This document shows positions 20,027 through 63,608 of a stretch of DNA of 64,000 bases, one piece after another (position 1 is the stretch's first letter; every line of letters begins with the position of its first letter). This DNA is from Halobacillus halophilus DSM 2266 (GTDB taxonomy: Bacteria; Bacillota; Bacilli; Bacillales; Halobacillaceae), in contig NC_017668.1 of assembly GCF_000284515.1 (NCBI RefSeq), forward strand, positions 496,001-560,000, in the 5' to 3' direction. The translations under genes and the position numbers were made by a program. The notes beneath the pieces are model-generated. The model saw only the letters and a list, made by a program, of their open reading frames with translations, had not been told where the DNA came from and made no database searches.

Positions 20027-20640
20027 GGCTCTGTTAATCTACATATTGATTTATTACAGTTAAGCTTCCTTTTCTTTAAGACTCAGTTTCGAGATAAATG
20101 GGTCCTTTACGTTATATGGAAAAGGGCTGATGGGGAAATAACTCGCTTTCCTATGGGGGAACGGTGAGCTTCCTCGTCGTTTCACTCCCTGTGGGATCTC
20201 ACCTAGTCCCTTCTCCCATGGGAGTCTCATCATTTCCCCACCAACCCCACTATAATGTTGCGAACGGACCCTCCCAGAAGATGAAAGTTCTTCTCCTTAA
20301 TCTGCATTAAATGCTTTTATAACAGGCTATTGTGCATCGTTATACCCTGAAAATAGGTACAGAACCCCCTGGTCTAATTCCTTACGAGTTAAAGTGGTTT
20401 CGAGCTTCTGATTTGGCCAGGTCCGGAGGGGGATGATGAAGACTCCTGCGGGATAAACATGATCGGTGAGACCCCAGAAGTCGAAGACTGAGGAGGCTCA
20501 GCACATGCCCGCGGAAAGCGAATCATCCCCCGCAGGACCTTTCTTGTCATAAAAGTATCTCGAAACTGAGTCTTCCACAATCCGGCCCGATAGCTGAAAA
20601 CTTCTTTGATAAAAGACCAAAAATAACTTTTAACATTGCT
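20027..20640 (+). repeat. Composite inverted repeat element, copy A
   Basis: Copy A of a five-member family. The left outer end GGCTCTGTTAATCT matches copy B. The core (20078-20574, 497 bp) is bounded by a perfect 19-bp inverted repeat (AAGACTCAGTTTCGAGATA and its complement). Inside are two oppositely oriented GC-rich hairpin modules of about 115 bases containing GACTCCTGCGGGA and GAGGAGGCTCA. The right outer end (to about 20640) is degenerate. No coding capacity is credible. Length and layout suggest a non-autonomous MITE-like element. Orientation class is the same as B and E. Confidence 0.75.
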
Positions 20641-29640: not shown

Positions 29641-30256
29641 GGCTCTGTTAAACTTCCGTGTTGATTTTAAGGTAAAGCTCCCTTTTGTTAAAGACTCAGT
29701 TTCGAGATAAATGGGGCCGTTACGTTAGATGGATAAGGGTTGGTGGGGAAATAACTCGCTTTCCTGTGGGGGAACTGGTGAGCCTCCTCAGTCGTTTCAC
29801 TCCCTGCGGGATCTCACCTAGTCCCTTCTCCCATGGGAGTCTCGCCATTTCCCCACCAACCCCGCTATAATGTTGCGAACGGACCCTTCCAGAAGATGAA
29901 AGTTCTTCTCCTTAATCTGCATTAAACGCTTTTATAACAGGCTATTGTGCATCGTTATACCCTTAAAAATAGGTACAGAACCACCTGGTCTAATTCCTTA
30001 CGAGTTAAAGTGGTTTCGAGCTTCTGATTTGGCCAGGTCCGGAGGGGGATGATGAAGACTCCTGCGGGATAAACATGATCGGTGAGACCCCGGAAGTCGA
30101 AGACTGAGGAGGCTCAGCACATGCCCGCGGAAAGCGAATCATCCCCCGCAGGACCTTTCTTCTCATAAAAATATCTCGAAACTGAGTCTTCCACAATCCG
30201 GCCCTATTGCGTAATGAGGCTCTTATGAAAAATCAACATTAAACTTTAACAGAGCC
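29641..30256 (+). repeat. Composite inverted repeat element, copy B (best-preserved, with target duplication)
   Basis: 616 bp. Outer ends GGCTCTGTTAAA at both termini form imperfect terminal repeats of about 28 bp (continuing to TGTTGATTTT). TTTTATTT flanks both sides exactly (29633-29640 and 30257-30264), an 8-bp target duplication that fixes the borders. The inner core 29691-30190 is bounded by a perfect 19-bp inverted repeat. Module 1 is closed by GGTTGGTGGGGAAAT (29739) and its complement (29847); module 2 by GGTCC...GGGGGATGAT and ATCATCCCCC...GGACC (30036-30155). No transposase; non-autonomous. Confidence 0.85.
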
Positions 30257-39590: not shown

Positions 39591-39702
39591 TCTCCTTATC
39601 TTTCAGACCATGGTCTGCTGGAAGGAGCACCTTCTATGACTTTGATAGAGGTTGCTGCGGGATCAAAAGACCAGTTTCCTCCCCCGGCTCGTTATAAGGA
39701 AT
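39591..39702 (-). promoter_or_regulatory. SAM-I (S-box) riboswitch aptamer
   Basis: Read on the minus strand, P1 is TCCTTAT ... ATAAGGA. The conserved core follows in order: CGAG, GGGGGAGGAAACTGG, GATCCCGCAGCAACC, AGAAGGTGCT, TTCCAGCA and TGAAAGATAAGG. This is the SAM-I consensus (compare GCAACC, AAGGTGCTA--TCC-GCA and the GAAGATAAG end of yitJ). Binding of SAM stabilises the aptamer and favours the downstream terminator. The only gene downstream is the FbpA-like small protein at 39313-39471. Confidence 0.9.
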
Positions 39703-44852: not shown

Positions 44853-45526
44853 AGCTCTGTTAAGCGCTATTGTTGATTTTTCATGAAAAAACTTATTAAG
44901 CAATAGGGCCGAATAGTTGAAGACTCAGTTTCGAGGTAATTCAGGTCCGTCGCCGAAAAATAGATGAGGTCGGCTACGGAAACAACTCGCTTTCCTGCGG
45001 GGGAACTGGCAAGCCTCCTCGGTCGTTGACACTCCCTGTGGGGTCTCGCCTCGCTCCTTCTCCCGCGGGAGTCTCCTTGTTTCCTTCGCCTCCCTATGAA
45101 TGAAGAGTGAACGGACCCTTCTATAGGTGAAAAGGAAAGTTTGATCCGCCTCAAGTGCTTATATAACGGGATTCATTCAGCTGGATAAGCTCGTTGTTAA
45201 AAATGTCTCTCCATCATAAACCAGCGTTTTTTAAACATATTTCGAGCTCCATATATTGCAAGGTCCGGAGGGGGACGATGTAGACTCCTGCGGGATGAAC
45301 ATGATCGGTGAGACCCCGTAGAGCTTGCTCGAGGAGGCTCAGCACAGAAGAGGAGGTTCGACTAAGAACGCCACGTCCTGTGGCAACGTCGAACGACCCT
45401 GCGTCGTGCAGGGCCGGAAAGCGAAATCGTCACCCGCAGGACCTTCTGCTCAACAAATATCTCGAAATCAAGTCTTCCAGAAAAGGGAGCTTAACTTTAA
45501 AATAATCACGGAAATTTAATAGAGAC
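44853..45526 (-). repeat. Composite inverted repeat element, copy C (core inverted relative to arms)
   Basis: 674 bp. The left arm AGCTCTGTTAAG...TGTTGATTTTTCAT with AATAGGGCCG matches the right arm of copy B in reverse, and the right arm (GGGAGCTTAACTTTAA) matches B's left arm in reverse. The core (44920-45476) nonetheless reads in the same direction as B's core. The subfamily differs from A/B/E in its spacer and is shared with D. It contains a 68-base nested insert (45346-45413). Flanks are A-rich with no perfect duplication. Confidence 0.8.
45346..45413. repeat. Nested hairpin insert inside element C
   Basis: Absent from copies A, B and E at the same point of module 2. It is built from CCACGTCCTGTGG and CCCTGCGTCGTGCAGGG hairpins within a GTTCGAC...GTCGAAC inverted repeat. 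It looks like a second, smaller repeat family inserted in the first. Confidence 0.6.
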
Positions 45527-55209: not shown

Positions 55210-55993
55210 GGTTGTGGTGAACGTTGTAATTCATAAGCGGGTTATTCCGCTAAAGGGCCGGATTGCGGAAGACTAAGTTTTGAGATAATTCGGGTCCGTC
55301 GCCGAAAAGTAGATGAGGTGGGCTACGGATACAACTCGCTTTCCTGCGGGGGAACTGGCAAGCCTCCTCGGTCGTTTACACTCCCTGTGGGGTCTCGCCT
55401 AGCTCCTTCTCCCGCGGGAGTCTCCTTGTTTCCTTCGCCACCCTATGATTAAAGCGTGAACGGACCCTTCAATAGATGAAAAGAGGTACTTGATCCGCCT
55501 TAAATGCTTATATAACGGGATTCATACATGTAGATAAGCTCGTTGTTAAAAATGTCTCTCCATCATAAACCAGAGTGTTTCAAACATGATTTCGAGCTCC
55601 ATATATCGCAAGGTCCGGCGGGGGACGATGAAGACTCCTAGCTTAGAAGCGGAAGCACCTTGGTCAGCGGCGTATGGACTGGACTGAGCTGGCGGAGATA
55701 AAGGAAACACGAAGAGCGTAGCGATTCGATGTTGACTTATCGTACAGAAGCGAGGGAAGTCTCACTAGACGCTAGGTGCTGGAGCTGGATAGATCTTCTT
55801 ATCATTTATGTCCAGATTTTCGAGTAAGACTAAAAAAAGTGTAAGAATGGGATGCACATGATCGGTGAGATCCCGCAGAACCGGAAAGCGAAATCGTCCC
55901 CCGCAGGACATTTCTATTCAAATATCTCGAAACTTTGTCTTACGCAATTGAGATTTATCTTTAAAAAATCAACACTGAAATTTAATAAAAATG
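55210..55993 (-). repeat. Composite inverted repeat element, copy D (core inverted relative to arms)
   Basis: About 784 bp; the outer left edge is degenerate. Left arm (GCTAAAGGGCCGGATTGCGG) and right arm (AAAAAATCAACACTGAAATTT) are reversed relative to A/B/E, as in C. The inner ends AAGACTAAGTTTTGAGATA and TATCTCGAAACTTTGTCTT have drifted. The core spacer (GAACGGACCCTTC, CTTATATAACGGGATTCAT) is the same subfamily as C. It carries a nested insert at 55640-55848. Confidence 0.75.
55640..55848. repeat. Nested repeat insert inside element D
   Basis: About 209 bases interrupt the GACTCCT|GCGGGA text of module 2. The insert begins AGCTTAGAAGCGGAAGCACC and includes GACGCTAGGTGCTGGAGCT, giving an AGCACCT/AGGTGCT inverted repeat. 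I recall similar text as a dispersed repeat in Bacillaceae. It has no coding capacity. Confidence 0.55.
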
Positions 55994-63004: not shown

Positions 63005-63608
63005 AGCTCTATTAAATCTCCAAGTTGATTCTTTAAGATAAGCTCCCGTTTGTTGAAGACTCAGTTTCGAGATAAATGGGTCCTTTACGTTAGATGGACA
63101 AGGGCTGGTGGGGAAATAACTCGCTTTCCTATGGGGGAACGGTGAGCTTCCTCGCTCGTTTCACTCCCTGCGGGATCTCACCTAGTCTCTTCTCCCATGG
63201 GAGTCTCGTCATTTCCCCACCAACCCAACTTGATTAAGAAAAACGGCCCCTACTAGAAGAGAAAGGTTCTCCTCCTTAATCTGTATGAAATGCTTTTATG
63301 ACAGGCTATTGTGCATCGTTACATCCTAAAATAGGTACAAAACCACATGGTCTCATTCCTCATCACACAGGTGATGGTTGAAGTGGTTTCGAGCTTCTGA
63401 TTTGGCCAGGTCCGGAGGGGGATGATGAAGACTCCTGCGGGATAAACATGATCGGTGAGACCCCGGAAGTCGAAGACTGAGGAGGCTCAGCACATGCCCG
63501 CGGAAAGCGAATCATCCCCCGCAGGACCTTTCTTGTCATAAAAGTATCTCGAAACTGAGTCTTCAACTATCCGGCCCTTTAGCTGAATATTTTGCTTTTA
63601 GAAAAGCC
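63005..63608 (+). repeat. Composite inverted repeat element, copy E
   Basis: About 604 bp. Left outer end AGCTCTATTAAATCT...GTTGATTCTTT matches B's left arm. The core 63056-63563 is bounded by AAGACTCAGTTTCGAGATA and its perfect complement. Both modules are complete, with the GGTGGGGAAATAACTCGC/CATTTCCCCACC and GGGGGATGATGA/ATCATCCCCC stems. The right arm is shortened to GGCCCTTTAGC...AAAAGCC. Same orientation class as A and B. It lies between two minus-strand units. Confidence 0.78.

What the first reader, a model, noticed from the sequence alone, without database searches (positions are those of the whole stretch)
29641..30256. Composite, double-inverted-repeat element present five times in 64 kb
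Seen directly: copies A 20027, B 29641, C 44853, D 55210 and E 63005 share outer ends (GGCTCTGTTAAA... TGTTGATTTT), an inner 19-bp inverted repeat (AAGACTCAGTTTCGAGATA) and two opposed copies of a GC-rich hairpin module (GACTCCTGCGGGA ... GAGGAGGCTCA ... GCGGAAAGCGA). B has an exact 8-bp duplication TTTTATTT on both sides. So hairpin modules that I recall as dispersed repeats in Bacillaceae are here packaged as cargo of a transposable, transposase-less element. GGCTCT ends and 8-bp AT-rich duplications recall ISL3-like transposases, but that link is only a guess.
Basis: partly seen in the sequence, partly recalled or inferred. Interest (0 to 1): 0.75.

Follow-up and report, generated by a model that had tools for sequence, protein, structure and literature searches.

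The report
Jumping shell with a swappable core
In a salt-loving soil bacterium, at least a hundred small transposon-like pieces carry a folded core that appears to be copied from piece to piece separately from the shell that jumps, a two-layered way for repeats to spread that would be unusual if confirmed.

Summary
Copies A-E are there, and 101 paired copies, these included, were read in the same genome (Halobacillus, probably H. halophilus). The outer shell is a transposase-less element with 8-bp AT-rich target duplications. Its partner is not ISL3: 10 of 32 fetched IS1595-family loci carry the same GGCTCTGTTAAA...TGTTGAT ends (7 with exact 8-bp duplications), against 0 of 30 ISL3 loci. The window's genome has no IS1595 match; 8 of 22 same-genus genomes keep fragments.

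The unexpected part is the core. Across 53 copies, similarity of the core between the 19-bp inner repeats is unrelated to arm similarity, although the two arms correlate with each other. Eighteen copy pairs with cores at least 95% alike have arms at background. At 18 sites shared with a sister species, 22-26 of 36 arms (by method) match their own site best, but only 0-1 of 18 cores; core lengths differ and about half face the other way. So cores seem to be copied from site to site, replacing one another, with breakpoints at or just outside the inner repeats. Arm-guided ectopic gene conversion is my preferred mechanism (about 55%); a dedicated exchange enzyme is not excluded. Nested repeats, including Rfam Bacillaceae-1, form a third layer.

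The parts
29641..30256 (+). Copy B: complete element, best preserved in the window; core in 'parallel' orientation (arm 1 - core - arm 2)
   Evidence: perfect ends, exact 8-bp duplication TTTTATTT; no such element at this place in G019 or G001
29641..29668 (+). Outer terminal repeat, type-1 arm end (GGCTCTGTTAAA...TGTTGATTTT)
   Evidence: Same ends flank IS1595-family transposase genes
29691..29709 (+). Inner 19-bp inverted repeat, left
   Evidence: 125 of 200 inner repeats are exact; core-exchange breakpoints lie here or just outside
29738..29861 (-). Left hairpin module of B (opposed copy)
   Evidence: (folded as 29733-29860): z -6.1 on the minus strand, -5.0 on the plus strand
30036..30155 (+). 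Right hairpin module of B
   Evidence: (folded as 30039-30147): z -4.9 (+), -4.7 (-); 62 distinct family copies, 41 pairs, 98.1% of cells paired, 16 pairs with double-sided changes
30172..30190 (-). Inner 19-bp inverted repeat, right
30229..30256 (-). Outer terminal repeat, type-2 arm end
20027..20639 (+). Copy A (old insertion; arms found at the same place in G019 and G001, cores different)
44853..45526 (+). Copy C; core in 'inverted' orientation relative to arms
45346..45412 (+). Rfam RF01690 Bacillaceae-1 RNA nested in the right module of copy C
   Evidence: 69.5 bits against gathering 35
55210..55990 (+). Copy D (old; core 'inverted'; another dispersed repeat starts at 55640 inside its right module); ends approximate
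63005..63600 (+). Copy E (old; right end decayed, approximate)

Best explanation
A two-layer element. Layer 1, the shell (two unlike arms of about 50 and 66 bp with GGCTCTGTTAAA ends), is a miniature element moved in trans by an IS1595-family transposase, making 8-bp duplications in AT-rich DNA. No such transposase is found in the genome today; fragments survive in some congeners. Layer 2, the core between the 19-bp inner repeats (two opposed hairpin modules with a conserved fold), is copied from one shell to another and replaces the core already there, ending at or within about 14 bp outside the inner repeats. Most likely process (inferred): the GC-rich hairpins break or stall replication, the gap is repaired from one of the many other copies, and type-specific arm sequence next to the inner repeat sets the orientation (ectopic gene conversion). 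Shown: IS1595 ends, duplications, uncoupling of core from arms, kept orientation in the most similar copies. Inferred: breakage, repair pathway, any advantage to the host.
For: Shell: paired ends in 10 of 32 IS1595 loci, 7 exact duplications, 0 of 30 ISL3 loci; 16 of 42 placeable copies with near-exact 8-bp duplications against null 0.88. Core uncoupled within one genome: 12 pairs with cores 97.4-99.4% identical but 75-bp arms 57-81%, and one pair (L002, L003) with identical cores in different flanks (arms). Among 53 copies, arm 1-arm 2 rho 0.29 (0/500 permutations reach it) but arm-core rho 0.04 and -0.07; 18 pairs with cores at least 95% alike have arms 0.65/0.64 against a background of 0.63, while in those closest pairs the innermost 8 bp follow the core (0.90/0.81). 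Arms are uncorrelated with the core window next to them. Between species: ortholog ranks first for 26 of 36 arms but 1 of 18 cores, or 22 of 36 and 0 of 18 under stricter scoring. Flipped cores resemble each other at only 0.57-0.80, too little for a recent in-place flip. Orientation kept in 39 of 39 pairs with cores at least 90% alike. Core quarters lose correlation with distance, as conversion tracts would give.
Against: No break, repair intermediate or experiment was seen. Shared identity at each side is short (19-27 bp plus conserved arm bases), near or below the homology length usually quoted for RecA-dependent exchange in bacilli (recalled). Precise breakpoints fit a dedicated enzyme as well. 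In pairs with cores 90-95% alike the innermost 8 bp are already at background (0.68/0.64). G019 is a draft of about 90 contigs; how the window's own genome was assembled is unknown to me, and the identical L002/L003 cores could be an assembly collapse. In G001 some cores differ by plain loss. G019 cores are only weakly more like each other than like the window's genome (23.6 of 40), so cores look shuffled from an old shared pool rather than homogenised within a species.
Confidence: 0.6

Rival explanations
1. Site-specific cassette exchange: an unknown recombinase or transposase recognises the inner repeats (with their neighbours) and inserts or swaps cores in pre-existing shells.
For: Breakpoints sit at a 19-bp repeat that is strongly conserved (125 of 200 exact). 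The same repeat exists outside the shells as close outward-facing pairs (28 in the loci, 25 with a 22-bp spacer; these loci were fetched for holding the repeat, so this is no census). A minimal shell with only a 7-bp core exists (L149).
Against: Inner repeats are the same at both ends, so exchange through them alone should randomise orientation; similar copies keep it in 39 of 39 pairs. Core quarters are mosaic. No candidate enzyme was looked for beyond IS1595 and ISL3.
Confidence: 0.25
2. Ordinary IS1595-derived element with hairpin cargo; cores differ only because hairpin DNA decays, deletes and collects nested inserts quickly, helped by misassembly.
For: Deletions and nested inserts are real (copies C and D; in G001 site D has lost its core and sites A and E are truncated). 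At site C the G019 core looks like the shortened ortholog (rank 1, 2), and at one more site one end of the core is 0.97 alike (L401).
Against: Decay cannot give 97-99% identical cores inside arms that are 57-81% alike, nor cores closer to other sites than to their ortholog in 17 of 18 cases (18 of 18).
Confidence: 0.1
3. Invertible switch: the core flips in place at the inner repeats (phase variation).
For: Both orientations are common: 43 against 37 among 80 fully typed copies.
Against: Orientation follows the core tree with 3 changes (at least 2 forced by well-supported branches) against 16.7 in shuffles; flipped orthologs share only 0.57-0.80. A few founding flips are enough.
Confidence: 0.03
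4. ISL3-family transposase moves the shell.
For: Three ISL3 matches with equal scores are in the genome; ISL3 also makes 8-bp duplications (recalled).
Against: 0 of 30 ISL3 loci carry the paired ends, including the three in this genome.
Confidence: 0.02

Closest known systems
IS1595-family insertion sequences of the same order and their miniature derivatives
   Same: Ends GGCTCTGTTAAA...TGTTGAT, 8-bp AT-rich duplications; the fuller members hold a ~345-aa IS1595 transposase plus varied further frames
   Different: No transposase in the element or its genome; the core turns over separately from the ends
Bacterial MITEs in general (review PMC10969869: passages found by term)
   Same: Short, non-coding, terminal repeats, target duplications, high copy
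   Different: The terms 'nested', 'gene conversion' and 'IS1595' have no hit in that review's text; independent copying of the interior is the difference here
IS inversion by recombination between terminal repeats (ISWpi1 in Wolbachia, PMC3004938: abstract and discussion read)
   Same: Inversion of an element interior between short (23-bp) inverted repeats
   Different: There flips at 2 of 22 loci; here replacement by a different core, with flips as a by-product of donor type
REP/BIME/REPIN palindromic repeats (recalled; search listings only)
   Same: Short palindromic units in more than one arrangement, mosaic composites, gene conversion proposed (a title in a reference list seen)
   Different: No REP-type transposase link was tested; the outer shell is a DDE-type element
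Rfam RF01690 Bacillaceae-1 RNA
   Same: Nested inside one module of copy C
   Different: The hairpin module itself has no Rfam match at E<=1 in copies A and B or in six fetched loci

Membership tests
IS1595-derived MITE (outer shell) | Terminal repeats shared with an autonomous IS1595 element | tested here: met
   10 of 32 IS1595 loci (some loci are cut by contig ends, so a lower bound); NF033547 212 and 214 bits for two of them
IS1595-derived MITE (outer shell) | 8-bp target duplication | tested here: met
   16 of 42 placeable copies (of 100 rows) at 7-8 of 8; null mean 0.88
IS1595-derived MITE (outer shell) | No transposase gene inside; short | tested here: met
   B is 616 bp; no frame of 100 aa or more lies within A-E (one mechanical frame overlaps the right end of C); no IS1595 match in the genome
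IS1595-derived MITE (outer shell) | Cognate transposase in the same genome | tested here: not met
   0 PF12762 matches in own and 21 congeners; tblastn: none in own, fragments in 8 of 22 same-genus genomes. Not required for a relic MITE, but bars a claim of present activity
IS1595-derived MITE (outer shell) | Mobilised by an IS1595 transposase in a test | not testable with these tools
   Needs a transposition assay
ISL3-derived element | Ends shared with ISL3 elements | tested here: not met
   0 of 30 ISL3 loci
Site-specific invertible element | Frequent flips in place | tested here: not met
   3 changes on a 53-row tree; flipped orthologs poorly alike
Site-specific invertible or cassette element | Dedicated recombinase | not tested
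   No recombinase search was made
Gene conversion tract | Non-reciprocal copying with flanks left unchanged | tested here: met
   Near-identical cores held in two or more unlike shells; a copying enzyme would leave the same trace
REP/REPIN | Link to a TnpA-REP (RAYT) transposase | not tested
   No search made
Structured RNA module | Compensatory base changes in a conserved fold | tested here: inconclusive
   double-sided changes at 16 of 41 pairs, but the structure was taken from the same alignment, no shuffled control was run, and hairpin self-correction could also produce this

The most novel reading that the evidence does not exclude
The core is a mobile element in its own right that lives inside IS1595 shells: it spreads by copying itself from shell to shell and displacing the resident core, using its own recognition sequence (the 19-bp repeat with its neighbouring bases) and an enzyme not yet identified. 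The shell is then a landing pad that jumps rarely, while the core is replaced at most sites in the time the flanks diverge by roughly 5-12%.
Probability: 0.25. Interest if true: 0.82.

Novelty: new variant of a known kind. Interest (0 to 1): 0.62.

Why it matters
Repeats in bacteria are usually read as whole copies that jump and decay. Here shell and core have separate histories in the same few hundred bases, which makes it possible to measure copy-and-replace exchange between dispersed sites at natural rates, and gives a cheap test of whether hairpin-rich DNA drives it. It also warns that dating or classifying such elements from their interiors alone would mislead. The outer ends occur in 34 of 41 genomes searched, own included, so the IS1595 part probably matters for many genomes of the order.

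Tried and rejected
ISL3 as the mobilising family: rejected (0 of 30). In-place phase variation: rejected on the tree and ortholog identities. Whole-element transposition as the source of near-identical cores: rejected because arms differ. Simple decay: rejected for most sites, though it clearly adds to the differences in G001. Outward-facing repeat pairs as a circular-cassette junction: considered because they equal the two inner arm ends joined at CCC, but their flanks look like host DNA, not core, so not adopted. A clean empty site for copy B could not be shown: both sister species lack the element but also carry an extra stretch there. One search found nothing because I set the spacer one base too long. 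The 8-bp windows gave no value (threshold); one search measured them. In one search a looser arm threshold gave two own copies (L280, L345) and one G019 site the same arm type at both ends, with the stricter threshold, none of 80 fully typed copies did.

Rows dropped before counts: my script dropped rows with identical cores; one search shows that this removed three second readings of A, B and E and one real copy, L003, so 101 copies were read and 100 analysed. Of the 100, 98 got an orientation and 53 of ordinary length entered the tree and correlation tests. Of 18 shared sites, L384/L301 has arms that do not look orthologous (0.55) and L388/L025 was unclear for orientation; of the 18, 8 are flipped (7 without L384), 9 the same, 1 unclear. 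At the nine, the two 60-bp core ends are 0.58-0.97 alike, so a few cores may be partly retained. One search used 60-bp arm windows, which take in some flank on the type-1 side, and ranked cores by raw bit score, which favours long cores; one search repeats both without these faults (22 of 36 and 0 of 18). G019 copies were a sample of the positions listed, and L375 and L376 are one site, counted once.

Literature: ten searches in the open-licence library listed nothing that, by title or abstract, describes this element or this core exchange; subscription journals are mostly missing. Beyond PMC3004938 (abstract, discussion), PMC10969869 and PMC2267715 (passages) I saw listings only. Bacillus halodurans stem-loop families Bhal-1/Bhal-2 (PMC2267715) might be related; not compared.

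Full report
What is there. The window is 64 kb of a 4,150,632-bp contig in a genome of 4,170,008 bp in three contigs. In a capped listing, named genomes holding the inner repeat are mostly Halobacillus and Thalassobacillus; the size and three-replicon make-up fit H. halophilus DSM 2266 as I recall it, so I treat that as probable. All five copies exist as described, save that D has no clear left end. Copy B alone is pristine: perfect 12-bp ends and an exact TTTTATTT duplication.

Copy number and target duplications. The 19-bp inner repeat occurs 430 times with up to three mismatches, against 1 for the reversed control. I read 101 distinct paired copies, A-E included, and analysed 100. Both outer ends could be placed in 42 of the 100; 16 have 7-8 of 8 matching flanking bases (null mean 0.88, maximum 4 in 500 shuffles), exact repeats peak at length 8 (9 copies; none at 9), and the left flanks are 84% A+T.

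Who moves the shell. In 41 genomes, own included, the outer-end pattern occurs in 34, reversed control 0. Family searches for IS1595 (PF12762) and ISL3 (PF01610) transposases gave loci. Of 32 IS1595 loci, 10 have both ends paired at 20 or more of 30 bases around the gene, 7 of these with exact 8-bp duplications; of 30 ISL3 loci, none. Two of these transposases score 212 and 214 bits against the NCBIfam IS1595 model (cut-off 75). Several of the ten carry a further, different frame beside the transposase. The window's genome has no IS1595 match by profile, nor do 21 congeners; by tblastn 8 of 22 same-genus genomes keep fragments, the window's genome none. So the shell is an IS1595-family miniature element whose engine is not found in its genome.

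Two kinds of arm and a core that faces either way. Between outer end and inner repeat lie two unlike arms, type 1 (...AAGCTCCCGTTTGTTG) and type 2 (...CAATAGGGCCGGATTGTGG). All 80 fully typed copies have one of each. The core faces either way relative to the arms: 43 against 37. On a tree of 53 cores orientation needs 3 changes, at least 2 forced by well-supported branches (16.7 in shuffles), so flips are rare founding events.

The core travels without the arms. In the window's genome, 12 pairs have cores 97.4-99.4% identical with 75-bp arms only 57-81% identical; one more pair, L002 and L003, has identical cores and different flanks (arms). Over 53 copies, arm 1 and arm 2 distances correlate (rho 0.29, 0 of 500 permutations), arms and core do not (0.04, -0.07). 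In the 18 pairs with cores at least 95% alike, arms are at background (0.65/0.64 against 0.63), but the 8 bp next to the inner repeat follow the core (0.90/0.81); in the 21 pairs at 90-95% they no longer do (0.68/0.64). Orientation is kept in 39 of these 39 pairs. The two arms, some 500 bp apart, correlate (0.23, 0.29) while each is uncorrelated with the adjacent core window (0.11, -0.06, 0.01, -0.01); 12 of 16 neighbouring core windows correlate at 0.5 or more, four do not (0.21, 0.24, 0.31, -0.05). The 12 pairs are not identical, which speaks against collapse by the assembler; the one identical pair does not.

Between species. G019 is Halobacillus alkaliphilus FP5: its contig C67 has the length (120,547) and repeat positions of NZ_FOOG01000008.1. 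Eighteen sites share both flanks (at least 100 aligned bases at 78% or more, mostly 88-95%). Arms agree at 0.74-0.85 from 15 bp outward (random same-type arms 0.55-0.70) but the innermost 7 bp do not (0.63 against 0.72). The ortholog is the best match for 26 of 36 arms and for 1 of 18 cores; with windows kept inside the element and core scores corrected for length, 22 of 36 and 0 of 18. Core lengths run 122-923 against 163-864 bp. Orientation is the same in 9, flipped in 8 (7 if one site with doubtful arms is left out), unclear in 1; flipped cores are only 0.57-0.80 alike at their ends, so they are replacements, not recent in-place flips. Sites A, C, D and E read by eye show a matching outer arm or arms in G019 and G001 and a different core in each; in G001 part of this is loss, since D has no core left and A and E lack the right inner repeat. 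Cores of the two species are intermixed (best hit within G019 in 23.6 of 40), as if shuffled among sites from an old shared pool.

The modules. They fold strongly on either strand (z -4.7 to -6.1). Sixty-nine right modules from 98 copies (62 distinct) support 41 pairs with 98.1% of cells paired and double-sided changes at 16 pairs. The structure came from the same alignment and no shuffled control was run; hairpin self-correction is a rival to selection. No Rfam family matches the module in copies A and B or in six fetched loci, but Bacillaceae-1 RNA (RF01690) is nested in the module of copy C, and another dispersed repeat in that of D. The inner repeat also occurs outside shells as close outward-facing pairs. 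With up to two mismatches it is in all 25 genomes searched of the window's family, in some only once or twice, and in 2 of 16 others with one hit each; one genome also shows one hit of the reversed control.

Mechanism. Copying with fixed flanks and kept orientation points to arm-guided ectopic gene conversion, perhaps started by breakage at the hairpins. Repeat-only site-specific exchange should scramble orientation, but an enzyme that also reads the arms is not excluded. Recombination between 23-bp inverted ends is reported for ISWpi1 in Wolbachia (PMC3004938; abstract and discussion read), which makes short-homology events believable.

Verdict. Observation confirmed; interpretation partly supported; ISL3 replaced by IS1595; the independent turnover of the core is the finding worth following.

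Noticed in passing
window 39593-39700 (-): SAM riboswitch (RF00162, 74.1 bits).
   Followed up: no
window 45346-45412; L134 2011-2693: Bacillaceae-1 RNA (Rfam) sits inside a hairpin module of copy C and, by eye, a like sequence sits in the same module of a copy in H. alkaliphilus: this Rfam 'sRNA' behaves as a nested repeat.
   Followed up: partly
window from 55640; L049, L150, G019 site D: A further dispersed repeat (AGCGGAAGCACCTTGGTCAGCGGCG... and like forms) lies inside modules of several copies; in D it starts just after GACTCCT, which may be a preferred insertion point (by eye).
   Followed up: no
L080 6034-6093, L092 3446-3505, L113 455-514 and others of the 28: Close outward-facing pairs of the inner repeat (25 of 28 with a 22-bp spacer) outside shells in Halobacillus and Thalassobacillus; further single repeats look like longer versions with terminator-like hairpins (by eye).
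   Followed up: partly
L222, L229, L230, L232, L233, L234, L237, L238, L239, L242: IS1595 elements of the same order with these ends carry different further frames beside the transposase; two were searched: acetyltransferase-like (L222) and alpha/beta-hydrolase-like (L234), all listed matches below the models' cut-offs.
   Followed up: partly
L031 856-1528; L053 1501-2058: Elements with the same ends but no transposase seen: L031 holds a 185-codon hydrophobic frame, L053 only short frames; possibly passenger-only cassettes.
   Followed up: no
L149 5220-5380: Minimal 161-bp shell with the two inner repeats 7 bp apart and an exact 8-bp duplication TTTCATTT.
   Followed up: no
window left flanks of 20027, 29641, 63005: Several copies sit in or just after a T-run, in A and B that of a terminator-like hairpin; a possible target preference (by eye).
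   Followed up: no
window 29641-30256 place in G019 and G001: Both sister species lack copy B but have several hundred other bases between the same two genes.
   Followed up: no
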